From an uncultured Bacteroidota bacterium (GTDB taxonomy: Bacteria; Bacteroidota; Bacteroidia; Flavobacteriales; Flavobacteriaceae), in contig CACAZM010000001.1 in NCBI GenBank assembly GCA_902536935.1, positions 86,013 to 150,012 of the forward strand: 64,000 nucleotides of DNA, read 5' to 3'. A program made the translations under genes and the position numbers. The notes under the pieces were generated by a model. It saw nothing but the letters and a program-made list of their open reading frames with translations, made no database searches and was not told the origin of the DNA. Positions 14,670 through 56,759 of the stretch are shown one piece after another. How positions within the stretch are numbered: position 1 is the stretch's first letter; every line of letters starts with the position of its first letter.

Positions 14670-14911
14670 TGTTATGTTTTTTGTGAATATAGAAATCAAT
14701 TATTCATTGTCAATATAACATCTAGTTCAAATCATTGTATTTATTTAATTATCTCTAGTTTTAAATTTATTTGATTAATATCAAAAACTTAATAATTACC
14801 ATTTTTTTTTAACTTTTTCTGATTATTGAACAATTTTTTACATAAAATATTTAATTTGTTTTAGTGTTACATGTTTTTTTTGACCAAATTTATTTTCAAA
14901 GAATAAACAAA

Positions 14912-17900
14912 ATGAAACAACTAACTTATTTTTTCTTATTGCTTCCTATAATTTTATTCTCACAACAACTAGTTGTTAAAGGAGTTGTTCTAGATGATAT
15001 TGGTGATCCACTTCCTGGAGCAACCATACAAATTCAAGGACTTAACGAGGTAGGAGCGATTACAAATTTTGATGGAGAGTTTTCTATCCTTCTTGATTCT
15101 CCAGACCAATCTATTGTTGTTTCTTATATTGGCTTTATCTCCGAGACTGTGCAGTTTAACGGCGAAAATAATCTTACTGTAATTCTATCTCAAGATATTT
15201 CCGAGCTTGAAGAAGTAGTTGTAATTGGATATGGAACAGTCTTGAAAAAAGATCTTACTGGTTCTGTTGCATCAGTTGAGGTGTCTGATGAAATTGCAAA
15301 ACAAACCTCAACAGTCGATCAGCTTTTACAAGGTAGGGCTGCTGGAGTTTATGTAACCCAAAACGCAGCAAACCCAGGTTCTGGAATTAGCGTAAGAATT
15401 AGAGGTACTAGTAGCTTGCGTGGTAACAATGAGCCATTGTATGTTGTTGACGGAATAATTATTTCATCTGCTAGTGAGGACGTTGTTGCTACAGGAGGTG
15501 GAAATACTGGTCAGGAACAACAGAACGGATTGAATGGAATAAATCCCCGTGATATTGAAGACATTCAGATTCTGAAAGATGCTTCCGCTACTGCAATTTA
15601 TGGCTCCAGAGGTGCAAATGGAGTAGTTTTGATAACAACTAAAAAAGGGACACCGAATCAAGTAAAAACAAATATATATGTAAATACCTCCATAAAAGCT
15701 ATTTCAAAAAATTATGATGTCCTTAATGCTGTTGACTATGCACGGTATAGAAATGAATCAAACCTAAGGACAACTGAAACACAATACCCAGCTTTCCACA
15801 TCGCAGGAGATCAAATATATCAAATTACCAATCTTGATGGAGTTGTAACTATCTCTGATACTCCTGTTAGTACAGTCAACTGGCAAGAGGAATTATTAAA
15901 TCCATCACCAAGTATAAATGCTGGAATTTCAATCTCAGGTGGTAGTGACAGTGGAAATTATTATTTGTCAGGTGGTATAAATGATAACAGAGGGCTGGTT
16001 GAAAATTCAAGTTTTAAAAGTGGAGATATTAGGCTTAATATTGATCAAATATTGAGTCCTAAAATTAAAATCAATGCACGACTAAGCGGATTTTTCAGTG
16101 AAACTGATTTTGCTGAAGGTGGAGATTTAATTGGAAGTTCCAATCAGAGTTTCATCAGAAATTTACTTTCATTTAGACCAATACTCCCTGACGGAATAGA
16201 AGATGCAGAAAATACAGATGATTTAGGAATTTCAAGCCCTTATTCATTTATTGATGATTTTGAAGATGTTTCAAGTGAAAACAGATTTTTCGGTGCAATT
16301 TCTACCACATTTGACCTAGGAATTAAGGGCCTTAGTTATCTTTTCCGTGCAGGTGGAAATATGCGTACAAAGGAAAGAAGACGTTTTTATGGCTTAACTA
16401 CTTACGTAGGTAAAAATGCTAACGGAATGCTCCAATTATCTAAGTTAGAAACTACTTCCTTTCAATTTACAAACACTCTAAGGTTCAACAGGGCGTACCG
16501 TGGTAACAATAGAATAAATGCAGTACTAGGTTTGACATATGATCAGCGTAACACACAAAATATGACTTATGTTGTTCAAGATTTTGTTACCCTTGAAAAA
16601 ACAACTGAGCAGCCGTTTTTTGGTCAAGTTATAACAAGTCCACTGGCTAACATAGATTCAGAAGTAAAATTATTTTCAGCGTTAGGTCGTGTTAATTATG
16701 TTTTTAATAATAAATACATTTTGACTGCTAGTTTTAGGAGAGATGGAGTTTCCAAATTTTTAGAGGAATCTAGATATGGTTTTTTTCCTTCTATGGCATT
16801 TGCATGGAATATGGATCGTGAGGACTTTGTAAAAAATATCCCATTTATTGATACACTCAAATTACGTTTGGGATGGGGCCAAATTGGTAATCACGGAATT
16901 GGCGCATATGGGTCATTATCGAACTATGGAATTAATGCTTCTGTATTATACGGGACATCCACTAACGGAACTAGCGTTCCTTTAATACTAAACAATATTT
17001 CAAATCCATCATTAACCTGGGAGACTACAGAACAACAAAATTTTGGTGTAGATTTTACTCTATCTGATAACTTAATTTCAGGGACTATAGATGTTTACAG
17101 TAAGCTTACAAAAGATTTATTGATTAACTCAAATATTGCACCTTCGACTGGTTTTAGTAATGTTTTGTTGAATAAAGGTGAGTTGTCTAATAAAGGACTT
17201 GAAATTGCATTACAAATTAGCCCTGAAGAATCAGGAGATTTAAATTTTAGTTTCGGTGGAAATATTGCATTTAATAAAACTGAAATTCAAGGTTTATCAT
17301 CACAACCTCTATCGTCAGTTTATTTAAATGACTCATCTACTGAACCTGAACAAAGAAGATTTTATCTTGGTAATGCTGTAAGTAGGGGAAATTATTTCAA
17401 ATACCCTGCTAACATTTTTATTCAGGGAGAAGAAACATCACTTTTTTACGGCTACAAAACTTATGGGATTTATCAACCTGACGATGAATTTATTGGAGGT
17501 GCCCAGGCTGGTGATGTTAGAATTATAGACATTAATGAAGACGGAGTAATTGATGAAACTGATAGAACTATAATTGGAAATCCAAATCCTGACTTTACAT
17601 TTGGTTTGAACTTCTCATTAAACTATAAATCATTTTCATTATCTGCACTAGTTAATGGAGTTCATGGAAATGACATTATTAATGGAAATGCTCTTCAAAT
17701 GGGTAATGCCGAGGGATTATACAGAAACATTACCCCAGAAGCATATCATAATGCTTGGCGGCCGGAGAAAGTGGGTCAAACTTCATCAACTGCGGTAACC
17801 CACCCAAGAATTGGTTATAAAGTTATCGAGGGACCAGAATTTAAAGCCATCTCTGATAGATTTGTTGAAGACGGGAGCTATCTAAGACTTAAAAATATTT

Positions 17901-18112
17901 CTCTAGCCTATGATATTCCTTTGTCAAAAAATAGTGCCCTTAAGAGTGCTAATATTTATGTAACCGCTCAAAACTTGTTTACGCTTACAAAATATACTGG
18001 CTTTGATCCAGAAATTACTAGCTTCATGTGGAATGGCTTAATTAATGGAGTTGATTGGAATGGACCTCCAAATGCCAAGTCTATCTTAATTGGATTAAAC
18101 TTTAACTACTAG
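14912..18112 (+). CDS. SusC/RagA-family TonB-linked outer membrane receptor
   Basis: ORF from 14864; signal peptide begins at MKQLTYFFLLL (14912). Carboxypeptidase-like N-terminus (VVLDDIGDPLPGATIQIQG), plug EEVVVIGYGTVLKKDLTGSV, IRGTSSLRGNNEPLYVVDGI, DIEDIQILKDASATAIYGSRGANGVVLITTKKG. Confidence 0.97.
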   Translation: MKQLTYFFLLLPIILFSQQLVVKGVVLDDIGDPLPGATIQIQGLNEVGAITNFDGEFSILLDSPDQSIVVSYIGFISETVQFNGENNLTVILSQDISELEEVVVIGYGTVLKKDLTGSVASVEVSDEIAKQTSTVDQLLQGRAAGVYVTQNAANPGSGISVRIRGTSSLRGNNEPLYVVDGIIISSASEDVVATGGGNTGQEQQNGLNGINPRDIEDIQILKDASATAIYGSRGANGVVLITTKKGTPNQVKTNIYVNTSIKAISKNYDVLNAVDYARYRNESNLRTTETQYPAFHIAGDQIYQITNLDGVVTISDTPVSTVNWQEELLNPSPSINAGISISGGSDSGNYYLSGGINDNRGLVENSSFKSGDIRLNIDQILSPKIKINARLSGFFSETDFAEGGDLIGSSNQSFIRNLLSFRPILPDGIEDAENTDDLGISSPYSFIDDFEDVSSENRFFGAISTTFDLGIKGLSYLFRAGGNMRTKERRRFYGLTTYVGKNANGMLQLSKLETTSFQFTNTLRFNRAYRGNNRINAVLGLTYDQRNTQNMTYVVQDFVTLEKTTEQPFFGQVITSPLANIDSEVKLFSALGRVNYVFNNKYILTASFRRDGVSKFLEESRYGFFPSMAFAWNMDREDFVKNIPFIDTLKLRLGWGQIGNHGIGAYGSLSNYGINASVLYGTSTNGTSVPLILNNISNPSLTWETTEQQNFGVDFTLSDNLISGTIDVYSKLTKDLLINSNIAPSTGFSNVLLNKGELSNKGLEIALQISPEESGDLNFSFGGNIAFNKTEIQGLSSQPLSSVYLNDSSTEPEQRRFYLGNAVSRGNYFKYPANIFIQGEETSLFYGYKTYGIYQPDDEFIGGAQAGDVRIIDINEDGVIDETDRTIIGNPNPDFTFGLNFSLNYKSFSLSALVNGVHGNDIINGNALQMGNAEGLYRNITPEAYHNAWRPEKVGQTSSTAVTHPRIGYKVIEGPEFKAISDRFVEDGSYLRLKNISLAYDIPLSKNSALKSANIYVTAQNLFTLTKYTGFDPEITSFMWNGLINGVDWNGPPNAKSILIGLNFNY

Positions 18113-18115
18113 ATC

Positions 18116-19678
18116 ATGTTTAAAAATTCATTATTAGTCATGGAAAAATTTCAAAATTATTCTTTAAAAGTTGTCAGCTTTATTACAATTGTAACTTTTT
18201 TTATTTCTTGTGATTTAGATGAGTATCCTCCCTTTATGGATAACACACTCTATAGTGACCCTCAGAGCGCTGAGGCAGCAAGAGATGGAATTTATGCAGC
18301 ATTTACTCACTATAATGCTATGGAGCAAAGAATGTTTGTTGAAAATGGTTATTCAGGCCTTTTTACAACTCGAAGGGGAGGAAACAAACTCAGTTCTGTT
18401 TGGATGAATGGAGTTATGAAGCTAAAACCCAATGAAAATGTTGACAATCAAAACACTTGGATAGGTTTGTATCGAATAATTTCCCGAGCCAATGCCGCAA
18501 TTGACAATTCCACAGTTGATTTAAATTCAACTGATCCATCTCAATTAAGAATTAATGATGTCGTTGGGCATGCATATTTTAGCAGATCTTTTGCTTATTT
18601 TTCTTTAACAAGGTTATGGGGTGATATTCCAGTTTGGACATCATTGCCAGAAGCGGACAACACTAATAAGGCTAAAACCACTTCAAAGGAAGTTTACAAA
18701 CTCATAATTGATGATGCGAATCAAGCTAAATCTCTTTTGAACGGAGCTGCAGTTGGTTTTCCAAAAGCTCATGCAGCTAAGATGCTCTTAGCAAAAGTTT
18801 ATATGCTTTTGGCAACAAATCCAGATCTACATGATGATGATTTATCAGAGCTGGATTATTGGAATTTAGCATATTCTGAGTCCAAAGATATTTATCTGTC
18901 TGGTGAATATTCACTAGTATCTGATTTTTCATCTTTATTTGATGGGACAAATGAAAACTCAACAGAATCAATTTTTGAACTTCAGAATAGCCAAGATGCT
19001 GGAAATTCACAAATGGGTCGTAACTACACACCTTGGAAATATAAAGCGGGTCAAGCATTTGGATGGTTTTTTGTTTCTGCTGACGTATATGATTATCATG
19101 TTGCTCATTACCCTGCCGATTTAAGACTCGATGCTACATATTTACATGAATACCAGCGTGCCGATACTGGTGGGACAGTGAGACTCTATCCGTCTAATTC
19201 CTCTAGAAGTAGTTTTGGAAATTCACATCCATATTTATTCAAACATGCTGAGAAAGATAAAACCCACACAAACCAATATAACAGCCAAAATTTAATCATT
19301 TTTAGATACGCAGATTTACTTTTAATGCTAGCTGAAATCTCAAATGAACTTGATAATGGTGAGCAGTTAGGTTATGTCACAGAAGTTTTAGAACGTGCTG
19401 GACAAACTCCTCATGCGGGTTATTTGGGTGACAAGAACAGCTTTAGAGATGCCATCATGGATGAGTATCGCTTTGAGTTATTGGGAGAAGGCCACGACTC
19501 CTATAACAATAGGAGAAGAGGATATGATTACTTCCTAGAAAACACTATCAATAGACATAATAACAACCCGAATTTTAAATCTTCTGTCGATGTATTATTA
19601 AACGACGTTGAATCTGAGGTTATGTTCTTAGATATTCCTCTTTTAGAAATAAATAACAACGAACTATTAAATGATTAA
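18116..19678 (+). CDS. RagB/SusD-family outer membrane glycan-binding lipoprotein
   Basis: FFISCDLDEYPPFMDNTLYSDPQSAEAARDGIYAAF; ARAYFSRSFAYFSLTRLWGDIPVWT-type motif; FRYADLLLMLAEISNE; follows susC by 3 nt. Actual start may be the Met at 18140. Confidence 0.95.
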   Translation: MFKNSLLVMEKFQNYSLKVVSFITIVTFFISCDLDEYPPFMDNTLYSDPQSAEAARDGIYAAFTHYNAMEQRMFVENGYSGLFTTRRGGNKLSSVWMNGVMKLKPNENVDNQNTWIGLYRIISRANAAIDNSTVDLNSTDPSQLRINDVVGHAYFSRSFAYFSLTRLWGDIPVWTSLPEADNTNKAKTTSKEVYKLIIDDANQAKSLLNGAAVGFPKAHAAKMLLAKVYMLLATNPDLHDDDLSELDYWNLAYSESKDIYLSGEYSLVSDFSSLFDGTNENSTESIFELQNSQDAGNSQMGRNYTPWKYKAGQAFGWFFVSADVYDYHVAHYPADLRLDATYLHEYQRADTGGTVRLYPSNSSRSSFGNSHPYLFKHAEKDKTHTNQYNSQNLIIFRYADLLLMLAEISNELDNGEQLGYVTEVLERAGQTPHAGYLGDKNSFRDAIMDEYRFELLGEGHDSYNNRRRGYDYFLENTINRHNNNPNFKSSVDVLLNDVESEVMFLDIPLLEINNNELLND

Positions 19679-22668: not shown

Positions 22669-23028
22669 ATGAAAAAATTAATTACACTAATTATTGCCTT
22701 TGGCTTTATTTCAATCAGCTCTTATGCTCAGGATTATACCAAATTCCAGATGCAGCGAGCTACATTGTTTTCAAATTATATTACAGAGCAGATGGGACTA
22801 AATGAAACTGAAAAAAAGTTTGTTTACGATGTTATGCTTGCAAGAATATATAATGCGAATACAAAAATTCAGTCAGGAAATTTAACTGCAAGTGAAGATA
22901 AGCGAGCTGTATATTCGGCTGAATATAAAACTGCGCAAGAAAAACTTGCTGACAAGTTTGGAGCAAAAATGGCTCGAAAAATGATGACTTTAAGTAATGA
23001 AGCAAGAAAGAAGGCTGAAAAGAAATAG
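22669..23028 (+). CDS. Small (119 aa) exported, Lys/Ala-rich predicted helical protein of unknown function
   Basis: Signal peptide MKKLITLIIAFGFISISSYAQ; mature part lacks obvious catalytic motifs. Confidence 0.65.
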   Translation: MKKLITLIIAFGFISISSYAQDYTKFQMQRATLFSNYITEQMGLNETEKKFVYDVMLARIYNANTKIQSGNLTASEDKRAVYSAEYKTAQEKLADKFGAKMARKMMTLSNEARKKAEKK

Positions 23029-25063
23029 TTTTTTATTTTCATACTTATTAAATACAACTAGCCTGCTGCTAATTTTAGTAGCAGGTTTTTTAAATGCTCA
23101 ACAGACTCCTCAACAACTTGTTGAAAAAATGGGTAGGGGAATAAATTTAGGTAATGTATTAAGTGCTCCAGTTGAAGGGAATTGGTCTGGTGCTGTAACG
23201 GAGAAGTATTTTATTGATGTAGCACAGGCAGGTTTTAAAAATGTAAGAATCCCAATGGATTTTTTTGGAACAAGAACCTCTGGCGATACTTCACAATACT
23301 CAGCTAATGCTAACACTACATTTACTGGATCTCGGGGTGATTTTGTTGTAGATCCTTTCTACTTTGACCGCTTAGAGCAAGTGATTGGCTGGGGACTTGC
23401 ACAAAACTTAGTAATTATTCTTGACTTCCATGGAGCTACACTAAAATCTGAATTTATTTACACTTTTGATGATTTGGAGGATGAATATACCTATCCAACT
23501 TCTGCTAAAAGAGCTGCCGATCTGGCTAAATTTTACTCCATTTGGGAACAAATCGCAAATCGCTTTAAAGACTACAGTGATGATTTAATTTTTGAGGTCA
23601 TCAATGAACCTTATTTTCATATTTCTGCAGAAGAAATGGATGATATAAACAATGAGGTTATATCCATTGTAAGAAGTTCTGGTGGAAATAATGTGACAAG
23701 AAAAGTGATTGTTACCGGTGGGACAAAAACAAGTTACCAGGCAATTACAACTATTGACCCCCAAATAATAAATAGTGATAATTTCTTGATAGCCACCTTT
23801 CATTACTATCGCCCATTTAGTTTCACTAAGTCTAGTGACTACAGATTCAATGTTAATAGCTGGGGAAGCCCAATGGATAAAAATAATGTAGATAGTGAAT
23901 TTGATATTGTAAAAAACTGGGCAAATGGGTTTGATCCTCCAGTAGCTGTTTACCTAGGAGAGTTTGGGGCAGATAATGTTTATGGATACAGCTACCGAAC
24001 AGGAGATCTACATCTTGTGACAGCTAACAATCCACCAAATGGCACTGGTTATGCAGACGGAGGTCCAGACCCCAACTCCAGAGTTAAATTTCACGGTTAC
24101 GTTGCTAATGCAGCAATAGATAGGGGATTTTCTTTTTCAGCTTGGGATGATGGTGGTAAAGGTTCAAAAACAATTCATCTACGAAAAGACAGTGGTTTAA
24201 CTACTTATGATATAAATTATTTTACAATTGACAGTTTTGTGCCAAAACAAACTAACCCTAGTACTGTAATTGAAAATAGCCTGTGGGTTGATGACGTTAA
24301 AGATGCGCTGCTCAATTCATATTCCGAAATTCAATGTAATGATACTAGTATTTTAAAAAATATTGATTTTGAATGTGGGTATTCAACAAGTTGGTCTTTA
24401 TTGGAAATAGGTAACAACGTTCAGGCCACTTTTCAAGATGCAGGATTTACTGCTCGTACTGGTTCTCATGGAGCTAAAGTGGTTGTTAATCAGGCACAAA
24501 GTTTAAACAGTGTAATACTTGCCAACCAAACAATATCTAATGACGGTAGCTTGGATAATATGCAACTCAAGTTTGGTGTCCATGGCAAAGCTTCAGTTTC
24601 AGGGTTACAATTTAAGCTTCGTGTTAAACACGTAATCAGCGGCGAGAATTATTTTTCTGCATCTCCACTCTTCACACTAGATACAAATTATTCTGAAAGT
24701 CCCTACGAATTTACTTTTGATGTTCCATTGGAAACAACCTCCATTCAATTCCAACTTATTTGCGGTGGTACAGTAGGCACATATTATTTTGATGATTTTT
24801 CTGCTTCATTAACATCCTTAAATATTACACGACAAAAGGAACTTTTTGAAGTTTACCCCAACCCTACTAAAGATTTCATTTTCATTGATAGCTCGGTTCC
24901 AATTGCCAAAATTCAACTCATTGATTTAAGGGGTAGAGAAGTTTTGTTTTGGAACAAGGAAATGGAAGCGTATGACATTTCTGTTTTAGAAAATGGTGTA
25001 TATTTTTTAAAAATATTTTCAACAAATGGTTTACTTCATATAAGAGAAATTTTAAAATACTAA
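22997..25063 (+). CDS. Glycoside hydrolase family 5 enzyme with C-terminal CBM-like region and T9SS sorting domain
   Basis: MGRGINLGNVLSAPVEGNW, GFKNVRIPMDFFGTR, LIFEVINEPYFHIS (acid/base Glu), VAVYLGEFGADN (nucleophile Glu); EVYPNPTKDFIFIDSS...NGVYFLKIF. Overlaps the upstream gene by 32 nt. Confidence 0.88.
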   Translation: MKQERRLKRNSFLFSYLLNTTSLLLILVAGFLNAQQTPQQLVEKMGRGINLGNVLSAPVEGNWSGAVTEKYFIDVAQAGFKNVRIPMDFFGTRTSGDTSQYSANANTTFTGSRGDFVVDPFYFDRLEQVIGWGLAQNLVIILDFHGATLKSEFIYTFDDLEDEYTYPTSAKRAADLAKFYSIWEQIANRFKDYSDDLIFEVINEPYFHISAEEMDDINNEVISIVRSSGGNNVTRKVIVTGGTKTSYQAITTIDPQIINSDNFLIATFHYYRPFSFTKSSDYRFNVNSWGSPMDKNNVDSEFDIVKNWANGFDPPVAVYLGEFGADNVYGYSYRTGDLHLVTANNPPNGTGYADGGPDPNSRVKFHGYVANAAIDRGFSFSAWDDGGKGSKTIHLRKDSGLTTYDINYFTIDSFVPKQTNPSTVIENSLWVDDVKDALLNSYSEIQCNDTSILKNIDFECGYSTSWSLLEIGNNVQATFQDAGFTARTGSHGAKVVVNQAQSLNSVILANQTISNDGSLDNMQLKFGVHGKASVSGLQFKLRVKHVISGENYFSASPLFTLDTNYSESPYEFTFDVPLETTSIQFQLICGGTVGTYYFDDFSASLTSLNITRQKELFEVYPNPTKDFIFIDSSVPIAKIQLIDLRGREVLFWNKEMEAYDISVLENGVYFLKIFSTNGLLHIREILKY
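23062..23091 (+). terminator. Rho-independent terminator-like hairpin inside the GH5 signal-peptide coding region
   Basis: cctgctgcta-attt-tagtagcagg (10-bp stem with one G-T pair, 4-nt loop) followed by tttttt. Confidence 0.6.
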
Positions 25064-25093: not shown

Positions 25094-27706
25094 GTGAACA
25101 AAAAGCTATTTTATTTTTTTTGTTATTTTTTGGTAATATTTTATGTTCAAAGCCAACAAAGTCCTAATGTTGTATTTATATCTGTTGATGACCTCAAACC
25201 AACATTAGGGAGCTTTGGTGATGAAATTGCGATCACACCCAACTTGGATTATCTTTCACGTTCATCAACAATTTTTTTAAACAATCACACCCAACAAGCT
25301 ATTTGTAGTCCATCAAGAATAAGTTTGCTTACGGGGATGCGTCCAGACTATACACAAGTGTATGATTTGAAAACCAAAATGAGAGACAAAAGACCAGATA
25401 TTTTGACTTTGCCTCAGTATTTCAAAGATAATGGTTATACAACAGCTGGAATTGGTAAAATATTTGACCCTAGAGGAGTAGACAATCTACTAGACGAGCC
25501 ATCATGGAGTATACCTTTTCTAAAAGCACATAAAATACCTTACCCTGACGATTTTGGTCAACCAAAACTAGGGTTTTATCAAAACCCAGAAATCAAAGCT
25601 AAGATCGATAGGATGATTGTTGAAAATAATCTTAAAAGAGGTAACTTGGGCAAATTTTTCAAAAATAAATACAAACCTCCAGTTTCCAATAGTAATGCTC
25701 CTGATCAAGCGTATACGGATGGAGCAATTGCTGAAGAAGCAATTCGTTTGATTGATCGCTTGTCTTCAGACAAAAACCCTTTTTTTCTTGCTGTTGGCTT
25801 CAAGAGACCTCACTTGCCATTTTCAGCACCTAAGAAATATTTTAATTTATATAACCCTAATAAAATTCCAATAGAACCATTTAGACAACGTGCAGAAAAT
25901 GTTGGAGAGCTTGCTTATCATAATTCTGGTGAACTACAAAGTTATGTAGAGGATGGAAGAGAATACATTTTGGACTCAAATCAACAACTCAAACTTGATA
26001 AAAATTTTGAAAGAGAATTGATTCACGGTTACTATGCGTGTGTCACATTCATTGATTTTCAAATCGGAAAAATTATAAAAAAATTAAACCAAAGTGGATT
26101 AATGAACAACACAATTATCGTAGTTTGGGGAGATCATGGGTATCACTTTGGAGACCACCAGCTTTGGAACAAACACTCCAATTTTGAGCAGGCTACTCGC
26201 TCACCACTTATCATCTATAACCCTAAAACAAAAACCGCTCAGAAAATTGTAACTCCAACAGAGTTTGTAGACGTTTTTCCAACATTAATAGAAATGGCGG
26301 AACTAAAACCACTTGATCACCTAGATGGTAATTCTCTTGCTCCTTTGATGCTTGGTCAACAACAAAAGGTAAAGGATTTTGCAGTTAGTCAATATCCTAG
26401 ACGTAATTTTATGGGATATAGTTTTAGAACTGCAAATCATCGCTATACGCTATGGATAGAAAAAGAAAAGATTGGCTCTAAAATTAATGAGAATGATATA
26501 AAACAAGAAGAGCTATTTGATTACAGCAGTGATCCATTAGAAACAGAAAATCATATTGGTAAAACAGGGTATAAAAATATTTACAATGACCTAAAGCAGC
26601 AAGCACTTCTATTTTTATCTCCAGCCCAAAAAATAGAAACGAATTCTATTAGTACAGGCCTTTCGACTGGTATTAAAGACTTGTTGATGCAATCAGATTA
26701 TAATACAAATAAAGTTTATGTTGGTGCCACGTTAAATCACTCGCAACTCAATACAAAAGTTTCTGATCTATTTCTCAATGAGTTCAATTATTCAACCCCG
26801 GAGAACTGCGCAAAACAAGCAAGAATTCACCCTAAACCAGGTGTTTGGGACTGGAACCGCATTGATGATTACTTAGACTTTGCAGATAAAAACAAAATTA
26901 CTCTTCGCATTCATGGACCAATCAGTCCCCAAGCTTCTCATTGGGCAAAGGCAGATAATCGGACAAAAGAAGAATTAGAAAATAATATGGTGGAGTACTT
27001 TACTGCGCTTTGTAAACGCATGAATAAAGAACCCTCTGTAAAGTGGATGGATGTTGTTAACGAAACAATAACTCCACAAGGAGATTGGTTTGAAGAGAAG
27101 CCAGGAGTCACACAATGGGAAAATCCTTGGGAGCAAATAGGAAGAGATGAAAATGACGTACCACTATACATAACTAAGGCATTCGAAATATCAAATAAGT
27201 ATGCTCCAAATGTTAGCCAGGTGTTTAATCAGCATGGAGGAATGGAGCCAAAAATGTGGGAGAAGGTTAAAGAGACAATAATCTATCTAAAAGCGAAAGG
27301 GTATCGTGTAGATGGACTTGGGTGGCAAGCACATTTGAGAAGTGATATTCCTTTGGCTTTAGACAAAAAACAGCTCGAATACTTTTCTTCTCTTATTGAT
27401 TGGGCTCATCAAAACGATTTAGACTTTCATGTTACCGAAATTGACTATAAAATTTGGGATAGAAATAATGATTTTAAAGCTCTTAATGATCAAGCTGATG
27501 CGTATGCAAATATTCTTAGTGTTCTATTGTCAAAGCGAGACAGTGGTGTAGTTACTTTTAACACTTGGGGAATGGTCGATGGTAAAAAAGGAAAACATCA
27601 CGATAAACATCGCTTTATTTTTGATAAAAACAACAATCCTAAGCCAGCATATTTTTCACTGAGAAACACAATTTTAAACCCTAATAATGAATTAAAAATT
27701 AAGTAA
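25094..27706 (+). CDS. Bimodular secreted sulfatase - GH10 (endo-xylanase-like) fusion
   Basis: 870 aa, GTG start. N-terminal S1 sulfatase (SPNVVFISVDDLKPTLGSFGD; QAICSPSRISLLTG, Cys71; FFLAVGFKRPHLPFSAP; VVWGDHGYHFGDH). C-terminal GH10-like barrel (FNYSTPENCAKQARIHPKPGVWDWNRIDDY; WMDVVNET, Glu657; FHVTEIDY, Glu782). Confidence 0.92.
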   Translation: MNKKLFYFFCYFLVIFYVQSQQSPNVVFISVDDLKPTLGSFGDEIAITPNLDYLSRSSTIFLNNHTQQAICSPSRISLLTGMRPDYTQVYDLKTKMRDKRPDILTLPQYFKDNGYTTAGIGKIFDPRGVDNLLDEPSWSIPFLKAHKIPYPDDFGQPKLGFYQNPEIKAKIDRMIVENNLKRGNLGKFFKNKYKPPVSNSNAPDQAYTDGAIAEEAIRLIDRLSSDKNPFFLAVGFKRPHLPFSAPKKYFNLYNPNKIPIEPFRQRAENVGELAYHNSGELQSYVEDGREYILDSNQQLKLDKNFERELIHGYYACVTFIDFQIGKIIKKLNQSGLMNNTIIVVWGDHGYHFGDHQLWNKHSNFEQATRSPLIIYNPKTKTAQKIVTPTEFVDVFPTLIEMAELKPLDHLDGNSLAPLMLGQQQKVKDFAVSQYPRRNFMGYSFRTANHRYTLWIEKEKIGSKINENDIKQEELFDYSSDPLETENHIGKTGYKNIYNDLKQQALLFLSPAQKIETNSISTGLSTGIKDLLMQSDYNTNKVYVGATLNHSQLNTKVSDLFLNEFNYSTPENCAKQARIHPKPGVWDWNRIDDYLDFADKNKITLRIHGPISPQASHWAKADNRTKEELENNMVEYFTALCKRMNKEPSVKWMDVVNETITPQGDWFEEKPGVTQWENPWEQIGRDENDVPLYITKAFEISNKYAPNVSQVFNQHGGMEPKMWEKVKETIIYLKAKGYRVDGLGWQAHLRSDIPLALDKKQLEYFSSLIDWAHQNDLDFHVTEIDYKIWDRNNDFKALNDQADAYANILSVLLSKRDSGVVTFNTWGMVDGKKGKHHDKHRFIFDKNNNPKPAYFSLRNTILNPNNELKIK

Positions 27707-27709
27707 GAT

Positions 27710-30052
27710 ATGAGACTATTGTTATTTATTTTCTTTACAACCTTTTCATTAATTGCTCAGAATAATCCTTTGTATTTGGAATCAAATGCTAACATAGAGG
27801 ATCGTCTCAGCGATTTGATGGCACGAATGACTCTTGAGGAAAAAGTAGGTCAAATGTGCCAATATGTTGGGTTAGAGTATTTAAAAAAACAAAAGAGAAA
27901 CAAAAAAGCCTCTGGCGATGTATCTAAGCTTAATAAAGATGCTTTTGCGATGTATGGCTTATCAGAAAATGAAATAATACAAGAAATTATTGATGGAAAA
28001 ATCGGCTCTTTTCTTCACGTTCTTGATCCAAAGGAAGTAAACTATTTACAAAGTTTCACTTTAAAATCTAGGTTAAAAATTCCTCTTATTATTGGAATTG
28101 ATGCGATTCATGGAAATGCTATGGTTAGTGGAACAACGGTTTATCCATCTCCAATATCAATTGCTGCAACTTTCAACAATGATTTTGCTTATGAAGTAGC
28201 AAAACAAACCGCAAGGGAGATGAGAGCTACTGGCTCCCAATGGACATTTATGCCAAATATTGATGTGGCACGTGACCCGAGATGGGGACGTGTCGGTGAA
28301 ACTTTTGGTGAGGATCCATTTATGGTGGGAGAAATGGGTGAAGCTATGATTAAAGGTTTTCAGGGAGAAGATTTTGGTAAACCAAATAATGTTATTGCTT
28401 GTGCAAAACATATGATTGCTGGAGGAGAACCGCTCAACGGCTTAAATATTTCTCCTATGGATGTTTCTGAAAGGTCACTTTATGAAATTCATTTACCACC
28501 TTATAAAAAGGCAATTGATGCAGGTGTATATTCAATTATGGCAGCTCACAATGAACTCAACGGAATTCCATGTCATATGCATAAAGGTTTTATGACTGAG
28601 CTTTTTAGAAATAAGTGGGGTTTTGATGGATTTTATGTTAGTGACTGGTATGATGTCAAGCGAATATGGTCATATCATAAAGTCGCTAGAAACTATAAGG
28701 AAGCATCATTATTTTCTGTAGATGCTGGAATGGATATGAATATGCATGGACCTGAATTTTTTGATTTTATTGTTGCTTTAGTAAAAGAAAAAAAATTGTC
28801 AATAGAAAGAGTTAATGAAGCTTGTTCAAAGATATTATATGCAAAATTCCAACTTGGGTTATTTGAAAACCGCCTTGTTGACAACTCCAAAATAGACGAA
28901 AATGTTTTTATTGAAAGTCACTTAAATAAAGCTGAGGAAATAGCTGACAATTCGATCACACTTTTAAAAAATAACGACTTACTCCCGATCAATAATTCAA
29001 ACTCAAAGCGGATATTGGTAACTGGACCTAATGCGCATAATCATACCATTTTGGGAGATTGGCATTTTGAGCAGCCAGAGGAAAATGTTGTGACTATTTT
29101 TGAAGGCATACAGGAAGTTGGAGATAATTATAATCATAAAGTAGATTATTTCGATTCTGGTATCAAGATTAGAAATATTCAAGATTCGAAGATCAAAGCT
29201 ACTGCTAAAATGTCAAAAGATTATGACCACGTATTTGTTGTTGTTGGCGACAATTCTCTAAGGTATACATGGGAAGGTGGTAAAAGCTTTCAAAAGACAG
29301 CAGGAGAAAACAAAGCGAGAAGTTTTTTAGGTCTTCCTGGAAAACAGCTTGATTTAGTAAAATCCATTTATGAAATAAACAAAAACCTCACAGTAGTTTA
29401 TGTTAGTGGAAAACCGATCAGTGAGCCATGGATAGAAGATAATATTAAGTCAATCATTCATGCATGGGAACCAGGAAGCATGGGAGGTAAATCTATGGGT
29501 AAAATCGTTTTTGGAGAGATAAATCCAAGCGGGAAAATGCCCATGACGACTGCAAGATCAGTGGGTCAACTCACGATGGTTTATAATCACAAACCCACGA
29601 ATTATATTCATAAGTATGCTTTTGAGAAAACAAAACCACTCTATCGATTTGGTTTTGGATTAAGTTATACCACATTCTCTATTTCAAAACCAACCTTGTC
29701 TAGATCCAAATGGGATGGCACAGGAAAGGTGCTTGTTGAGGTGGATGTTAAAAACACTGGCAAAAGAGATGGCATGGAAACTGTGCAGCTTTATGTTCGA
29801 GACTTATTCAGTAGCGTTACTCGACCGGTACTGGAACTCAAAGAATACAAAAAAGTAAATGTTGCTTCTGGGAAAACGAAACGCGTATCCTTTAGCCTAT
29901 CCCTAGATGATTTTGCATTTTATGATAGAGAAATGAAGTATAAAGCTGAAAAAGGTGATTTCAATATTTTGGTAGGTAACGCTGCAAATTTGTCTAAACT
30001 CAAAAAGGCTCCACTCGAACTAACCAAAAACATTTACATAAATGAAAACTAA
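27710..30052 (+). CDS. Glycoside hydrolase family 3 (beta-xylosidase/beta-glucosidase-like)
   Basis: IEDRLSDLMARMTLEEKVGQM, ARDPRWGRVGETFGEDP, GFDGFYVSDWYDV nucleophile motif, C-terminal fibronectin III-like domain LVEVDVKNTGKRDGMETVQLYV. Confidence 0.96.
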   Translation: MRLLLFIFFTTFSLIAQNNPLYLESNANIEDRLSDLMARMTLEEKVGQMCQYVGLEYLKKQKRNKKASGDVSKLNKDAFAMYGLSENEIIQEIIDGKIGSFLHVLDPKEVNYLQSFTLKSRLKIPLIIGIDAIHGNAMVSGTTVYPSPISIAATFNNDFAYEVAKQTAREMRATGSQWTFMPNIDVARDPRWGRVGETFGEDPFMVGEMGEAMIKGFQGEDFGKPNNVIACAKHMIAGGEPLNGLNISPMDVSERSLYEIHLPPYKKAIDAGVYSIMAAHNELNGIPCHMHKGFMTELFRNKWGFDGFYVSDWYDVKRIWSYHKVARNYKEASLFSVDAGMDMNMHGPEFFDFIVALVKEKKLSIERVNEACSKILYAKFQLGLFENRLVDNSKIDENVFIESHLNKAEEIADNSITLLKNNDLLPINNSNSKRILVTGPNAHNHTILGDWHFEQPEENVVTIFEGIQEVGDNYNHKVDYFDSGIKIRNIQDSKIKATAKMSKDYDHVFVVVGDNSLRYTWEGGKSFQKTAGENKARSFLGLPGKQLDLVKSIYEINKNLTVVYVSGKPISEPWIEDNIKSIIHAWEPGSMGGKSMGKIVFGEINPSGKMPMTTARSVGQLTMVYNHKPTNYIHKYAFEKTKPLYRFGFGLSYTTFSISKPTLSRSKWDGTGKVLVEVDVKNTGKRDGMETVQLYVRDLFSSVTRPVLELKEYKKVNVASGKTKRVSFSLSLDDFAFYDREMKYKAEKGDFNILVGNAANLSKLKKAPLELTKNIYINEN

Positions 30053-31466
30053 TATTTATTTACTTATAATCTTTAGCTTCTTTTGCTTATCAGCAATAGC
30101 TCAAGAATCAAACCAAAAAAATGTTCTCTTGATCATCGTAGATGACCTACGGCCTGCTCTACCAACATATGGGGAAACTCAGGTTGTAGCTCCCAACATT
30201 ACAGCGTTTTCAAAAGATGCAGTACAATTTAATAATGCTTTTGTGAACATTCCCACTTGTGGTGCTTCAAGGGCAAGTATCCTTACAGGCATTAGACCAA
30301 CAAGAGAATATTATAAGAAGTATTACACATCTATTGATGAAGATATGCCACAAGCCATAACCATCTCGGAATTGTTGCAAGCCAAGGGCTACACTACTAT
30401 TAGCAATGGAAAGGTTTCGCATAACAAATCAGATAAAGCTTCTACTTGGGATGATTTATGGCGACCTGGGTCAACAACCCCAAAAGATTATCTTTTGGAG
30501 GAAAATATCGAATCTAGCGAGCTTCCACATAAAAATAATCATATGCCTTATGAAAAGGCCAATGTTGAAGACCAAGCATACAAGGATGGGAAAATTGCTG
30601 CAAAGACAATCAGAGATTTAAAGAAATTGAAAGCGAATAAAGAATCATTTTTTCTAGTCGCAGGCTTTTTAAAGCCCCATCTCCCATTTAATGCTCCTGC
30701 AAAATATTGGGAAATGTATGACAGAAACAATATTGCCCCTCCAGTAAATAATAAATTTCCAGCAACCGCATATGTGGGTGCAGGGAATTGGTATGAGTTA
30801 TCTAAATACAAGGGAATTCAAAAAGGTTATTCAGATGATACGCGATTGAATGCAAAGACATTTACCATGGATGCAGAAATGACTAACAATTTAATTCATG
30901 GATATTATGCATGTGTGAGTTATATCGATCAACAAATCGGAAATGTTTTGCAGGCACTTGATGACCTTAGTCTTTCCGAAGATACGATTGTAATAATTAC
31001 TAGTGATCATGGTTTTAGTTTGTCTGACCACAATAGATGGTCAAAACATAATTTATTCAAGGTGGAAAACCATGTTCCTTTATTTATTAGGGTTCCAGGT
31101 CTTTCAAATTCTGGAAAGTCTGATAGCTTTGTTGAGCTCATCGATCTATACCCCACAATTTGTGACTTGTTGGGTATAGAAAAACCCAAACAACTAGAGG
31201 GTATGTCCTTAGTTGAAAACATTAAAAATCCAAATCTAATTTCTAAAACAAACACATACTCGCGCTACACAAATGGCGATATGTATATCTCTGACAATTA
31301 TGCCTACTCTGAATGGAAGTATTCTGAAGAGGGCAAAATCGTGGGTAGAATGCTTTATAATATGAAAAATGACCCATTGCAGATGGAAAACTTGTCGCAT
31401 CTCGAAAAATACGAGACCCTTATGGACAGTTTAAGCAATAACATCAAATCAAAGAAAATTTACTAA
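30042..31466 (+). CDS. Secreted sulfatase (iduronate-2-sulfatase-like S1 family)
   Basis: KNVLLIIVDDLRPALPTYGE; maturation motif C-G-A-S-R (PTCGASRASILTGIRP); FFLVAGFLKPHLPFNAP; ITSDHGFSLSDH. Confidence 0.93.
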   Translation: MKTNIYLLIIFSFFCLSAIAQESNQKNVLLIIVDDLRPALPTYGETQVVAPNITAFSKDAVQFNNAFVNIPTCGASRASILTGIRPTREYYKKYYTSIDEDMPQAITISELLQAKGYTTISNGKVSHNKSDKASTWDDLWRPGSTTPKDYLLEENIESSELPHKNNHMPYEKANVEDQAYKDGKIAAKTIRDLKKLKANKESFFLVAGFLKPHLPFNAPAKYWEMYDRNNIAPPVNNKFPATAYVGAGNWYELSKYKGIQKGYSDDTRLNAKTFTMDAEMTNNLIHGYYACVSYIDQQIGNVLQALDDLSLSEDTIVIITSDHGFSLSDHNRWSKHNLFKVENHVPLFIRVPGLSNSGKSDSFVELIDLYPTICDLLGIEKPKQLEGMSLVENIKNPNLISKTNTYSRYTNGDMYISDNYAYSEWKYSEEGKIVGRMLYNMKNDPLQMENLSHLEKYETLMDSLSNNIKSKKIY

Positions 31467-31467
31467 T

Positions 31468-33069
31468 ATGAAAAATTATAAAGTTATTTTATTACTAGTT
31501 TGGAGCTCGTTTGTTTTAGCGCAGGATAAAAGGCCAAATATTTTGTTTATAATGTCTGATGACCATGCTTATCAAGCGATTAGTGCATACAACGACAAAC
31601 TAATTCAGACCCCCAATATCGATAAGATTGCTAAGGAGGGGATTTTATTTTCAAACGCGAGTGTAACAAATTCTATTTGTGCTCCATCTAGAGCGACGAT
31701 TTTAACCGGAAAGTTTAGCCATATCAATGGAAAAGTTGATAATATTTTTCCTTTTGATACGACTCAGATGACATTTCCCCAATTGTTTCAGAAAGCAGGA
31801 TACCAAACGGCAATGTTTGGTAAACTTCACTTTGGAAACAACCCAAAAGGTTTTGACGACTTCTTAATTTTGCCTGGACAAGGTCACTATATCAATCCCA
31901 AATTTATCGGGAAGGAAAAAGACACAATCATTACGGGATATGTAACAGATGTTATTACAGATCTGACTCTAAATTGGTTTGAAGAAAAGAGAGATGCATC
32001 CAAGCCATTTTTAATGATGTATCTTCACAAGGCACCACACAGGGCTTGGTGGCCAAGTCCTGAAAAATTTGAGGAATTTTACAAAAAAGAATTTCCATTG
32101 CCAGAAACGCTTTTTGATGACTACTCAAACAGAGCTTCAGCTGCTTCAAGTGCCGAAATGAATATTTTTGAACACATGCATTTGATGCAAGACAATAAGG
32201 TCTATCCAAAGACAATACAGCAAATGGGGGATTTGGTCAAAGACATAACTTATACTGGAGAGAGTAGAAAGATAAAAAAAGCAGGAGCAGGCGAATTTTT
32301 AAGACCTTTTAGACGAGCAAACAAAGGACAAGAAGAGCAATACAGAAAAACATTAGATAAAATCAGTGCTGATTTTAAAAACAAATGGCCAAATATGTCT
32401 GACAAAGAAAAAACCATTTGGAAATATCAGCGATACATGCAAGATTATCTCGCAACGATTTCGTCGGTAGATGATAATGTTGGTAGGGTATTAGATTATC
32501 TGAAAGAAAATGACTTGAAAGACAATACGATTGTTGTTTACACTTCAGATCAAGGGTTTTATTTAGGTGAACATGGTTGGTTTGATAAAAGGTTTATTTA
32601 TAACGAATCTTTTAAAACCCCACTGCTTATACGCTGGCCTAATAAAATAAGACCAGGAATAACAAATGATGAAATGGTGCAAAACCTCGACTTTGCACAA
32701 ACATTTTTGGATGCAGCAAGTATAAAGGCGCCCAACGATATGCAGGGTGAAAGTTTACTTCCTTTACTATTTGAGAATCAAAAAAAATGGACACGAGAAG
32801 CTGTGTACTACCACTACTATGAATTCCCATCTGTTCACATGGTAAAGCGTCATTATGGGATCGTTTCAAAAGAATATAAACTGGTTCATTATTACTATGA
32901 TATTGATGAATGGGAGTTTTTTGACAGAAAAGCTGATCCGAATGAAATGACAAACCTTTACGATGACCCAAAATATCAAAGTATCATTCAAAAGATGAAA
33001 AAGAAGCTGAAAAAACTTCGTAAAAAATATAAAGACTCGGATGAATTATCTCAAAAATATTTATATTAG
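31468..33069 (+). CDS. Secreted sulfatase (S1 family)
   Basis: RPNILFIMSDDHAYQAISAY; SICAPSRATILTGKFSH; VYTSDQGFYLGEHGWFDKRFIYNESFKTPLLIRWP. Confidence 0.94.
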   Translation: MKNYKVILLLVWSSFVLAQDKRPNILFIMSDDHAYQAISAYNDKLIQTPNIDKIAKEGILFSNASVTNSICAPSRATILTGKFSHINGKVDNIFPFDTTQMTFPQLFQKAGYQTAMFGKLHFGNNPKGFDDFLILPGQGHYINPKFIGKEKDTIITGYVTDVITDLTLNWFEEKRDASKPFLMMYLHKAPHRAWWPSPEKFEEFYKKEFPLPETLFDDYSNRASAASSAEMNIFEHMHLMQDNKVYPKTIQQMGDLVKDITYTGESRKIKKAGAGEFLRPFRRANKGQEEQYRKTLDKISADFKNKWPNMSDKEKTIWKYQRYMQDYLATISSVDDNVGRVLDYLKENDLKDNTIVVYTSDQGFYLGEHGWFDKRFIYNESFKTPLLIRWPNKIRPGITNDEMVQNLDFAQTFLDAASIKAPNDMQGESLLPLLFENQKKWTREAVYYHYYEFPSVHMVKRHYGIVSKEYKLVHYYYDIDEWEFFDRKADPNEMTNLYDDPKYQSIIQKMKKKLKKLRKKYKDSDELSQKYLY

Positions 33070-33973
33070 TAAGTTTTCTCTTTTTGTTCTTTTATTTTTT
33101 TCATTTGCTGGCGTTTCATTGGGTCAGATTGCTGAAAAAACAAAAGTTTTTATTCTTGCTGGGCAATCAAACATGGATGGTAGAGGTGACGCATCAAAGC
33201 TATCCGAAGCGGAAATGAAATTGTTAGCCAATGCAAGTGAAAAAATACATTTTGTTTATAAGGGGACTGTGGGAGAAGGAAATGCCATCCAATATGAAGG
33301 TGCATTAGACTTTACAAATCCATGGAGTTTTGTGAAACAAAAATTCAGAATTGAAAAATGCTTTGGTCCTGAGCTTTTTTTTGGCATTGAGCTTGTGAAA
33401 AATCATCCCAAACAGGAATATCTTTTTATTAAAAGATCTCAGGGCGGAACGTCTTTGTATGGCGCTTGGAATCCTAATTGGTCTTTTGAAAAGGCAAGTT
33501 TTTTTAACGAACAAGATAAACCAAAACTTTATCAAGATTTTATAAATCTTGTAGATGCTGAGCTTGCGAAATTAAATCCTGACAGTTATGAAATTGTTGG
33601 TATGCTATGGGTGCAAGGTGAGACTGACAGTAATATAAGTAATGGATCAGTAGCTACAGATACGTACCATCTTAATTTAGAAAATTTAGTCAATTCAGTG
33701 AGAGGTCATTATGATATTCCTAATCTTCCTTTTTTGACATTAGGTGTGGGTAGTAAAAAAGTTCAAAAAGCAATGGTTGAGGTAAGTAAAAAATTAACTA
33801 ATGTAAGCTTTATTGAGAGAAGTCAAGACGTAAATAAGAGGAACTATACACCAATTTACACACACAAATGGAAAGACAAGTCAGTGGGACATTACAACTA
33901 TGAGGGGATGAAAAAAATTGGGCAGCTATTTTTTGAAAGTTATCAAGCATCTTACGTAAATCTTTTACAATGA
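33041..33973 (+). CDS. SASA-domain carbohydrate esterase (CE6 / sialate O-acetylesterase-like), probable acetyl-xylan esterase
   Basis: KVFILAGQSNMDGRGD catalytic Ser motif; ECFGPELFFG-type block (KCFGPELFFGIEL); IVGMLWVQGETDS. Overlaps the upstream sulfatase by 29 nt. Confidence 0.85.
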   Translation: MNYLKNIYISKFSLFVLLFFSFAGVSLGQIAEKTKVFILAGQSNMDGRGDASKLSEAEMKLLANASEKIHFVYKGTVGEGNAIQYEGALDFTNPWSFVKQKFRIEKCFGPELFFGIELVKNHPKQEYLFIKRSQGGTSLYGAWNPNWSFEKASFFNEQDKPKLYQDFINLVDAELAKLNPDSYEIVGMLWVQGETDSNISNGSVATDTYHLNLENLVNSVRGHYDIPNLPFLTLGVGSKKVQKAMVEVSKKLTNVSFIERSQDVNKRNYTPIYTHKWKDKSVGHYNYEGMKKIGQLFFESYQASYVNLLQ

Positions 33974-35370
33974 GTAAGTTCGTAAATTCTGTATTTTTTC
34001 TTTTAAGTATTATGTTTGTTTTTGCTCAAAAGAACAAGCCCAACATTATATGGCTTGTATGTGAAGACCAATCAGCACAATTTTTTCCGATGTATGGTGA
34101 CAAAACAGTTTCATTGCCACACCTTGAAAAATTAGCAGAAGACAGCGTTCTTTTTGAAAATATGCATGCAACAACCCCAGTGTGTGCTCCTGCCCGAAGT
34201 GCCATAATTACTGGGATGTACCCCACGAGTTTGGGGACTCACAACATGCGTACTTACAATGAAGGAAGAAAAACCAATCAGCCTCAACTTGGAATACCCA
34301 GCTACTCTCCAAAATTCCCAAACCACATCAAACCCTTCACTGTCTACTTGAGAGAAGAGGGATATTATTGCACCAACAGCAACAAGCAAGATTACAATTT
34401 TGAAATTAGGAGTGATGCTTGGGATCAAAGTTGTCGTTATTGTCAAGGAGAAGAGAAAGAAAACATTCATTGGAAAAAAAGAGATGCAGGCCAGCCTTTT
34501 TTCGCAGTTTTCAACTTCCAAATCACACATGAATCACAGATTTGGAAGCAACAACAAAAAATATTTTTAGACCCAAATGATATTGAATTTATTCCACCTT
34601 ATTTCCCCGATGACCCTGTAATTAGGCGAGACATGGCAACTAATTATTCAAACCTTGTTCGCATGGATAAGGAAGTAGGTGAAATAATTTCAGAGTTAAA
34701 AGAGCAAGGGTTATACGATGACGCCTATATATTTTTTTACTCTGATCATGGCGGACCTTTTCCAAGACATAAAAGGGCCATTTATCAAACAGGCACAAAA
34801 GTTCCTTTCTTTATAAAATTCCCAAAATCACTTCATGCAGGAGAAAAAGATGAAAGGCTACTGAGCTTTGTTGATTTGGCACCCTCTGTTTTGCAAATGG
34901 CTGGAATTGAAATCCCTGAGCACATGCAGGGAAAACCAATCAGCGAATATTTGCACAAAAGCTTGAGAGATTACTTAATCACCGCATCAGATAGATTTGA
35001 TGGACAATATGATAGAATTCGAGCAATTCAAGATAAGAGGTTTAAGCTCATTAGAAGTTTTTACCTAGATAAGTCACACCATCTTGATGTTCACTACAGA
35101 AAAAATATGCCAATGATGCAAAAGCTACTGAAGCTTCATGTAGATGGACAATTAAATCAAGACCAACAAAAGTGGTTTGGTCTGAAAGAAGAATATGAAT
35201 TTTATGACTTGCAAACGGACCCGTATGAGATGAAAAATCAAATCCATAATTCCGATTATCAAGATCATATTCAATTACTCAAAGTTGAATTGGAAAAATG
35301 GATGCTAAACACAAATGATTTGGGAGCAGTACCTGAACAAGTATTGATAAAACAAGCAACTTCTCATTAA
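33970..35370 (+). CDS. Secreted sulfatase (S1 family)
   Basis: KPNIIWLVCEDQSAQFFPMYGD; CxPAR motif (VCAPARSAIITGMYPTSLGTHNMR); FYSDHGGPFPRHKRAIYQTGTKVPFFIKFP; ATGA overlap with upstream esterase. Confidence 0.94.
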   Translation: MSKFVNSVFFLLSIMFVFAQKNKPNIIWLVCEDQSAQFFPMYGDKTVSLPHLEKLAEDSVLFENMHATTPVCAPARSAIITGMYPTSLGTHNMRTYNEGRKTNQPQLGIPSYSPKFPNHIKPFTVYLREEGYYCTNSNKQDYNFEIRSDAWDQSCRYCQGEEKENIHWKKRDAGQPFFAVFNFQITHESQIWKQQQKIFLDPNDIEFIPPYFPDDPVIRRDMATNYSNLVRMDKEVGEIISELKEQGLYDDAYIFFYSDHGGPFPRHKRAIYQTGTKVPFFIKFPKSLHAGEKDERLLSFVDLAPSVLQMAGIEIPEHMQGKPISEYLHKSLRDYLITASDRFDGQYDRIRAIQDKRFKLIRSFYLDKSHHLDVHYRKNMPMMQKLLKLHVDGQLNQDQQKWFGLKEEYEFYDLQTDPYEMKNQIHNSDYQDHIQLLKVELEKWMLNTNDLGAVPEQVLIKQATSH

Positions 35371-43452: not shown

Positions 43453-43454
43453 TT

Positions 43455-45308: not shown

Positions 45309-45318
45309 AGGTGCTTAT

Positions 45319-50933: not shown

Positions 50934-50936
50934 AAA

Positions 50937-52238: not shown

Positions 52239-52241
52239 TGG

Positions 52242-56754: not shown

Positions 56755-56759
56755 TTATC

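What the first reader, a model, noticed from the sequence alone, without database searches (positions are those of the whole stretch)
25094..27706. Single-polypeptide sulfatase-GH10 xylanase fusion
One uninterrupted 870-aa ORF carries a complete S1 sulfatase (CSPSR maturation motif at Cys71, SVDD metal site, GDHGYHFGDH) and a C-terminal GH10-like barrel with acid/base (WMDVVNET, Glu657) and nucleophile (HVTEIDY, Glu782) motifs. S1 sulfatases and GH10 xylanases are normally separate proteins, and GH10 acts on beta-1,4-xylan. Inference: one enzyme removes sulfate and cuts the backbone of a sulfated xylan, either sequentially or with the sulfate required for productive binding.
Basis: partly seen in the sequence, partly recalled or inferred. 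Interest (0 to 1): 0.85.

Follow-up and report, generated by a model that had tools for sequence, protein, structure and literature searches.

The report
Sulfatase–xylanase fusion in marine bacteria
A marine bacterium makes one protein that joins a sulfate-removing enzyme to a xylan-cutting enzyme; this combination is real, conserved in at least 24 genomes and already mentioned in the literature, but its xylan-cutting half has an unusual, consistently altered active site that I found no description or test of.

Summary
It is no assembly chimera: the same fusion occurs in 24 distinct genomes or contigs (5 of 13 congeners; other Flavobacteriaceae; another family of the order; a Marinoscillum variant), inside a conserved PUL (SusCD–GH5–[S1-GH10]–GH3–S1–S1–esterase–S1). 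Both domains are under purifying selection (dN/dS about 0.06-0.10), the linker far less. The architecture is not new: Krüger et al. 2019 reported a 'sulfatase domain-containing GH10' as a recurrent part of putative sulfated-xylan PULs. The S1 half is closest to the ulvan endo-xylose-2-sulfatase P18_S1_7. What looks new: the GH10 half belongs to a distinct clade in which all 27 members examined (19 fused, 8 solo) lack the Trp-His pair of the HTLVWHSQ motif and the C-terminal 'SW' tryptophan that 17 of 17 canonical flavobacterial GH10s keep, and all fused sulfatases replace the GKxxH histidine by GKI[FY]DPR. Best reading: a periplasmic two-step enzyme for imported sulfated xylo-oligosaccharides. 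Activity and substrate remain untested.

The parts
25094..27706 (+). S1 sulfatase-GH10 fusion gene, 870 aa, GTG start
   Evidence: 24 fused homologues including this one
25094..25153 (+). N-terminal signal peptide (aa 1-20, by eye; no lipobox, no T9SS tail on the protein) implying periplasmic location
   Evidence: sequence; no Por_Secre_tail hit
25163..26602 (+). S1 sulfatase domain with C-terminal subdomain (aa 24-503), S1_7-like
   Evidence: best PDB sequence match 6hhm 1e-78; best fold match 6hhm, TM 0.86 by target
25304..25318 (+). CSPSR formylglycine motif, Cys71
   Evidence: Cys present in 18/18 fused rows that cover it
25454..25474 (+). GKIFDPR (aa 121-127): replaces the GKxxH segment of P18_S1_7 and IDS
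   Evidence: D-P-R 19/19 fused; P18 and IDS have His
26129..26140 (+). GDHG metal motif (Asp347, His348)
   Evidence: 19/19 fused
26615..26683 (+). variable inter-domain linker (aa 508-530)
   Evidence: variable in length and sequence; dN/dS 0.45-0.64 where measurable; pLDDT <50 at 511-524
26705..27664 (+). GH10 domain (aa 538-857)
   Evidence: model pTM 0.88, GH10 xylanases are the top PDB fold matches
26912..26932 (+). HGPISPQ (aa 607-613) in place of canonical HTLVWHSQ; Trp and His lost
   Evidence: 27/27 clade vs 17/17 canonical
27062..27064 (+). Glu657, acid/base
   Evidence: invariant 27/27 and 17/17
27437..27439 (+). Glu782, nucleophile
   Evidence: invariant 27/27 and 17/17
27578..27604 (+). 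DGKKGKHHD (aa 829-837) in place of the canonical D..[ST]W segment
932..5065 (-). hybrid two-component sensor/regulator (HTCS)
5210..6622 (+). S1 sulfatase
6731..7840 (+). GH43, nearest PDB 5glk and beta-xylosidases
7855..9336 (+). xylulokinase-like FGGY kinase
   Evidence: best model XylB, 277.7 bits, below its 380.25 cut-off
9348..10664 (+). xylose isomerase XylA
   Evidence: above cut-off
10668..12320 (+). sodium:solute symporter, probably for xylose (inference)
14864..18112 (+). SusC-like TonB receptor
   Evidence: sequence read; conserved upstream of the fusion
18116..19678 (+). SusD-like protein
   Evidence: sequence read; conserved upstream of the fusion
22997..25063 (+). GH5 with T9SS tail, probable surface endo-glycanase
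27710..30052 (+). GH3, nearest PDB beta-xylosidase 7zb3
30042..31466 (+). S1 sulfatase, conserved next to the fusion
31468..33069 (+). S1 sulfatase nearest to 6-O-sulfatases (S1_11 type)
33041..33973 (+). SASA-family carbohydrate esterase
33970..35370 (+). S1 sulfatase nearest to S1_8 structures
35406..36896 (+). S1 sulfatase
36880..38433 (-). S1 sulfatase
38430..39500 (-). Glyco_hydro_cc (GH128-like) with T9SS tail

Best explanation
A periplasmic bifunctional enzyme of a sulfated-xylan (or sulfated heteroxylan) PUL. Surface T9SS enzymes (GH5, GH128-like) release oligosaccharides, SusCD imports them, and the fusion processes them in two tethered steps: the S1_7-like domain removes sulfate (most likely 2-O on xylose), and the GH10 domain cuts the beta-1,4-xylosyl chain by a retaining mechanism (Glu657 acid/base, Glu782 nucleophile). 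Loss of the Trp-His pair and the C-terminal Trp of the canonical GH10 cleft probably opens it to substituted xylose. GH3 and GH43 xylosidases and the other sulfatases finish the job, and xylose enters XylA/XylB. Shown: the gene, its conservation, the catalytic residues, the remodelled motifs, the operon. Inferred: location, regiospecificity, order of steps, substrate.
For: S1 half closest by sequence and by fold to 6hhm, the ulvan sulfatase P18_S1_7, reported as an endo-2-sulfo-xylose sulfatase (PMC9096561). A second PUL sulfatase falls with S1_8 structures, the subfamily of the ulvan exo-2-sulfo-xylose sulfatase P32 (PMC9096561). Xylose isomerase, xylulokinase-like kinase, beta-xylosidase-like GH3 and GH43 in the same locus. 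Conserved PUL core in about 14 loci. Both catalytic domains under purifying selection, linker relaxed. Unfused S1 and GH10 relatives sit as near neighbours on one strand in other Bacteroidota. Precedent for consecutive action in a sulfatase-GH fusion: P36 (PMC8511951). Seven of 16 fused-specific basic positions, against 0 of 11 acidic ones, lie within 4 residues of catalytic or subsite positions (Fisher p 0.02; post hoc).
Against: No biochemical data. S1_7 is not monospecific (it also holds a kappa-carrageenan 4-sulfatase, PMC9096561), so 2-O-xylose is not assured. The GKxxH histidine is replaced in the S1 half and the GH10 cleft lacks conserved aromatics, so either activity could differ from its family's norm. 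No true FGE or anSME was found in this 78%-complete MAG, although all four other fusion-bearing congeners carry an FGE. A 6-O-type sulfatase and an endoglucanase-like GH5 suggest the glycan also holds hexoses. The charge argument is post hoc.
Confidence: 0.52

Rival explanations
1. Sulfate-dependent xylanase: the remodelled GH10 cleft accepts sulfated xylose at or next to the cleavage site, so GH10 cuts first (or only) sulfated chains and the S1 domain then desulfates the products.
For: Loss of bulky aromatics and fused-specific basic residues near the catalytic motifs; the remodelled clade, fused or solo, is mostly found with sulfatase genes nearby.
Against: Whole-domain counts are not decisive (16 basic vs 11 acidic fused-specific positions). 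The P36 precedent has desulfation before cleavage (PMC8511951).
Confidence: 0.25
2. The GH10 domain acts on a different linkage or backbone (e.g. beta-1,3/1,4 mixed-linkage or a glucose-containing heteroxylan), so 'xylanase' is the wrong label.
For: Clade separated from canonical GH10 with 100/100 support on a long branch, with dozens of clade-specific positions; GH5 endoglucanase-like and GH128-like partners.
Against: Xylose isomerase, xylulokinase-like kinase and beta-xylosidase-like partners; Lys574, His607, Asn656, Gln745, His747 and Trp825 all kept.
Confidence: 0.15
3. One domain is not catalytic (e.g. the S1 domain with GKI[FY]DPR only binds sulfated sugar).
For: Replacement of the GKxxH histidine in 19/19 fused proteins.
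Against: Cys, Arg, metal ligands, Lys122, His240 and Lys360 invariant; dN/dS about 0.1.
Confidence: 0.06
4. Assembly or binning artefact joining two genes.
For: The window is from a MAG in 44 contigs.
Against: 24 distinct genomes/contigs with the same join at roughly 50-93% domain identity.
Confidence: 0.01

Closest known systems
'Sulfatase domain-containing GH10' of North Sea Bacteroidetes PULs (Krüger et al. 2019, PMC6794258)
   Same: Same architecture, with GH3 and further sulfatases, in putative sulfated-xylan PULs of Formosa, Aurantivirga and Polaribacter MAGs
   Different: The main text gives only the domain call; no active-site analysis, phylogeny or biochemistry of the fusion
Formosa agariphila P36 (S1_25-GH78), ulvan PUL (PMC8511951)
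   Same: S1 sulfatase fused to a glycoside hydrolase; the two act in consecutive steps
   Different: Other S1 subfamily, GH78 rhamnosidase instead of GH10, ulvan substrate
P18_S1_7 (6hhm), ulvan endo-2-sulfo-xylose sulfatase (PMC9096561)
   Same: Closest solved relative of the S1 half (32% identity in the fold match)
   Different: Stand-alone; has GKVYH where the fusion has GKIFDPR
Canonical GH10 endo-beta-1,4-xylanases (e.g. 3niy, 1vbr, 8hkg)
   Same: Fold, acid/base, nucleophile, Lys, His, Asn, Gln, His and first C-terminal Trp kept
   Different: Trp-His pair of HTLVWHSQ and the C-terminal [ST]W Trp replaced; about 17-26% identity in the fold matches
Marinoscillum sp. MHG1-6 S1-CBM4_9-GH10 protein (L058, 1181 aa)
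   Same: Same two families in the same order, in a SusCD/GH3/S1 locus
   Different: CBM4_9 between the domains and an extra C-terminal module; its S1 half lies outside the main fused S1 clade

Membership tests
S1 sulfatase (formylglycine-dependent) | C-x-P-S-R maturation motif | tested here: met
   CSPSR 71-75; Cys 18/18 in fused rows covering it
S1 sulfatase (formylglycine-dependent) | Metal-site Asp-Asp and Asp-His | tested here: met
   D32 D33 D347 H348
S1 sulfatase (formylglycine-dependent) | Sulfate-site GK-x(1,2)-H (usual, from my own knowledge; not required by the family profile) | tested here: not met
   Lys122 kept, His replaced; GKI[FY]DPR in 19/19 fused. Pfam, PDB sequence and fold matches still place it in S1, so it is filed as an S1 homologue with a variant site, not as a proven sulfatase
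S1_7 subfamily | Closest to characterised S1_7 members by sequence and fold | tested here: met
   6hhm (S1_7) first, then IDS,
S1_7 subfamily | Assignment by the SulfAtlas subfamily models | not testable with these tools
   SulfAtlas not held
GH10 | Family profile above cut-off and (beta/alpha)8 fold | tested here: met
   140.3 bits vs 22.1; GH10 structures top the fold search
GH10 | Catalytic pair (Asn-Glu acid/base, Glu nucleophile) | tested here: met
   N656 E657 E782 invariant
Canonical GH10 endo-beta-1,4-xylanase | Trp-His of HTLVWHSQ and the C-terminal [ST]W Trp in the sugar-binding cleft | tested here: not met
   0/27 in the clade vs 17/17 canonical (one canonical row has Tyr for His); also present in the PDB relatives shown
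Canonical GH10 endo-beta-1,4-xylanase | Hydrolysis of beta-1,4-xylan | not testable with these tools
   needs expressed enzyme
Sulfated-xylan PUL, pattern 1 of Krüger et al. 2019 | Sulfatase-domain GH10 + GH3 + two more sulfatases | tested here: met
   fusion 25094, GH3 27710, S1 at 30042 and 31468; definition

The most novel reading that the evidence does not exclude
The fused and solo GH10s form an unrecognised GH10 subfamily whose cleft has been rebuilt to bind sulfated xylose, so that sulfate (or a sulfated neighbour) is part of the recognised substrate and the tethered sulfatase acts on its products: a xylanase specific for sulfated xylan.
Probability: 0.25. Interest if true: 0.75.

Novelty: new variant of a known kind. 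Interest (0 to 1): 0.45.

Why it matters
Sulfated-xylan PULs are one of the four main predicted PUL types in phytoplankton-bloom Bacteroidetes (PMC6794258), yet the substrate has been assigned by analogy with canonical GH10 xylanases. If the GH10 half of the signature enzyme has a different cleft, those substrate predictions need testing, and a single two-domain protein gives a direct handle: its S1 and GH10 halves can be assayed separately on defined sulfated xylo-oligosaccharides to identify the glycan.

Tried and rejected
Assembly fusion: rejected by 24 distinct genomes/contigs. Novel architecture: rejected by PMC6794258. FGE in the window's own genome: the PF03781 hits are GldK and GldJ; anSME model TIGR03942 gave nothing. 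Global excess of basic residues in fused GH10: not clear, as fused-specific acidic positions are also numerous; only their nearness to catalytic motifs differs, and that test was post hoc. Single origin of the fusion: not established; both domain trees need 4 label changes, at least 2-3 forced by supported branches, so repeated fusion or fission both remain open. Domain orientation and channelling: the full-length model has pTM 0.57 and an unreliable linker, so nothing was inferred. Paper searches found no characterised S1-GH10 enzyme in the held library, which lacks most subscription journals.

Full report
Observation. The ORF at 25094-27706 is intact and carries both domains at the stated places. 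Cys71, the metal-site residues, Glu657 and Glu782 are invariant among 13 aligned fused homologues. The start is GTG; the nearest relatives also have GTG there and more distant ones ATG. The N-terminus reads as an ordinary signal peptide; there is no T9SS tail.

Is it real and maintained? Protein searches of whole genomes and of genome contigs gave 32 fused ORFs, which I count as 24 distinct genomes/contigs after removing duplicates: 5 of 13 congeners, other genera of the family, one genome of another family in the order, and Marinoscillum. Synteny is conserved: SusC, SusD, GH5, the fusion, GH3, S1, S1, SASA esterase, S1 in about 14 loci with small variations. Against two close congeners dN/dS is about 0.10 for S1 and 0.06-0.07 for GH10, but 0.47-0.64 for the linker. 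A 16-sequence AlphaFold model gives two folded domains and a linker below pLDDT 50, with pTM 0.57, so their mutual orientation is unknown.

Sulfatase half. The best PDB relative by sequence and by predicted fold is 6hhm, the ulvan sulfatase P18_S1_7, then human iduronate-2-sulfatase. A review lists P18_S1_7 as an endo-2-sulfo-xylose sulfatase and P32_S1_8 as the exo one (PMC9096561). The PUL also holds a sulfatase whose best structures are S1_8. In all 19 fused proteins the GKxxH segment of P18 and IDS reads GKI[FY]DPR, while the other active-site residues checked are kept.

GH10 half. The domain matches GH10 by profile and by fold. Aligned with 8 solo relatives and 17 canonical GH10s from flavobacterial genomes, all 27 clade members lack the Trp-His of HTLVWHSQ (Ser/Gly-Pro instead) and the C-terminal [ST]W Trp, which the 17 canonical ones keep (one has Tyr for the His); Asn571, Lys574, His607, Asn656, Glu657, Gln745, His747, Glu782 and Trp825 are invariant in the clade. 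The characterised PDB relatives shown also have the canonical motifs. From my own knowledge these correspond to Trp84, His85 and Trp274 of S. lividans Xyl10A, which line the -1 region. A tree separates the clade from canonical GH10 with 100/100 support on a long branch. Fused-specific basic positions cluster near catalytic motifs (7 of 16 within 4 residues, against 0 of 11 acidic ones), but that comparison was made after looking at the alignment.

Origin. Unfused relatives lie on one strand near each other: S1 directly followed by GH10 in L116 and L117, and with one gene between in L118 and L119; one search shows similar pairs a few kb apart in further genomes. Fused rows do not form one clade in either tree, so repeated fusion or later fission cannot be told apart. 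Marinoscillum has a variant with a CBM4_9 between the domains.

Setting. The locus has an HTCS regulator, xylose isomerase, a xylulokinase-like kinase, a symporter, beta-xylosidase-like GH3 and GH43, and six further S1 sulfatases. The GH5 and the GH128-like protein carry T9SS tails, which suggests surface cutting, import, then periplasmic work by the fusion (inference). One sulfatase resembles 6-O-sulfatases; xylopyranose has no O-6, so the glycan probably also holds hexoses. Maturation: this MAG shows only GldJ/GldK among FGE-family hits and no anSME, but a 372-380 aa FGE is present in all four other fusion-bearing congeners, right next to the PUL in one; the MAG is 78% complete.

Literature. 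Krüger et al. 2019 describe a sulfatase domain-containing GH10 with GH3 and two sulfatases as a conserved pattern in putative sulfated-xylan PULs (PMC6794258). P36 of Formosa agariphila (S1_25-GH78) is a characterised sulfatase-GH fusion whose domains act consecutively (PMC8511951). An Antarctic Polaribacter xylan PUL with sulfatases, GH10, xylA and xylB was also reported (PMC6383258). Multi-domain sulfatases, most often with glycoside hydrolase domains, are reported from Planctomycetes (PMC4807772).

Verdict. What remains worth attention is the consistent remodelling of the GH10 cleft and of one sulfate-site motif in this enzyme family, which makes the usual 'xylanase on sulfated xylan' label an open, directly testable question.

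Noticed in passing
L115 16341-17702 (contig C1:84353-85714, just left of the window): A second, very divergent GH10 (454 aa) next to GH43, a GH59-like T9SS protein, an AXE1-like protein (below cut-off) and an aldose epimerase, so the xylan-related region extends left of the window.
   Followed up: partly
L139 4584-9201 and L140 4993-9575: A DUF1800-DUF1501-FGE gene trio lies beside the PUL in congener G008 and elsewhere in G009; in the window's genome no such FGE was found.
   Followed up: partly
L058 7904-11446: Marinoscillum 1181-aa S1-CBM4_9-GH10 protein with an extra C-terminal module, possibly an independent fusion of the same two families.
   Followed up: partly
12342-14699: T9SS-tailed protein with CBM4_9 and a weak beta-helix match on the opposite strand, function unclear.
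   Followed up: no
43003-58403: Cell-division and peptidoglycan (dcw) gene cluster, ftsZ onward, directly right of the PUL.
   Followed up: no
L022 1141-3054 and L026 1378-3750: Other relatives of the S1 half carry different C-terminal extensions (an unassigned tail; a T9SS-tailed module) instead of GH10.
   Followed up: partly
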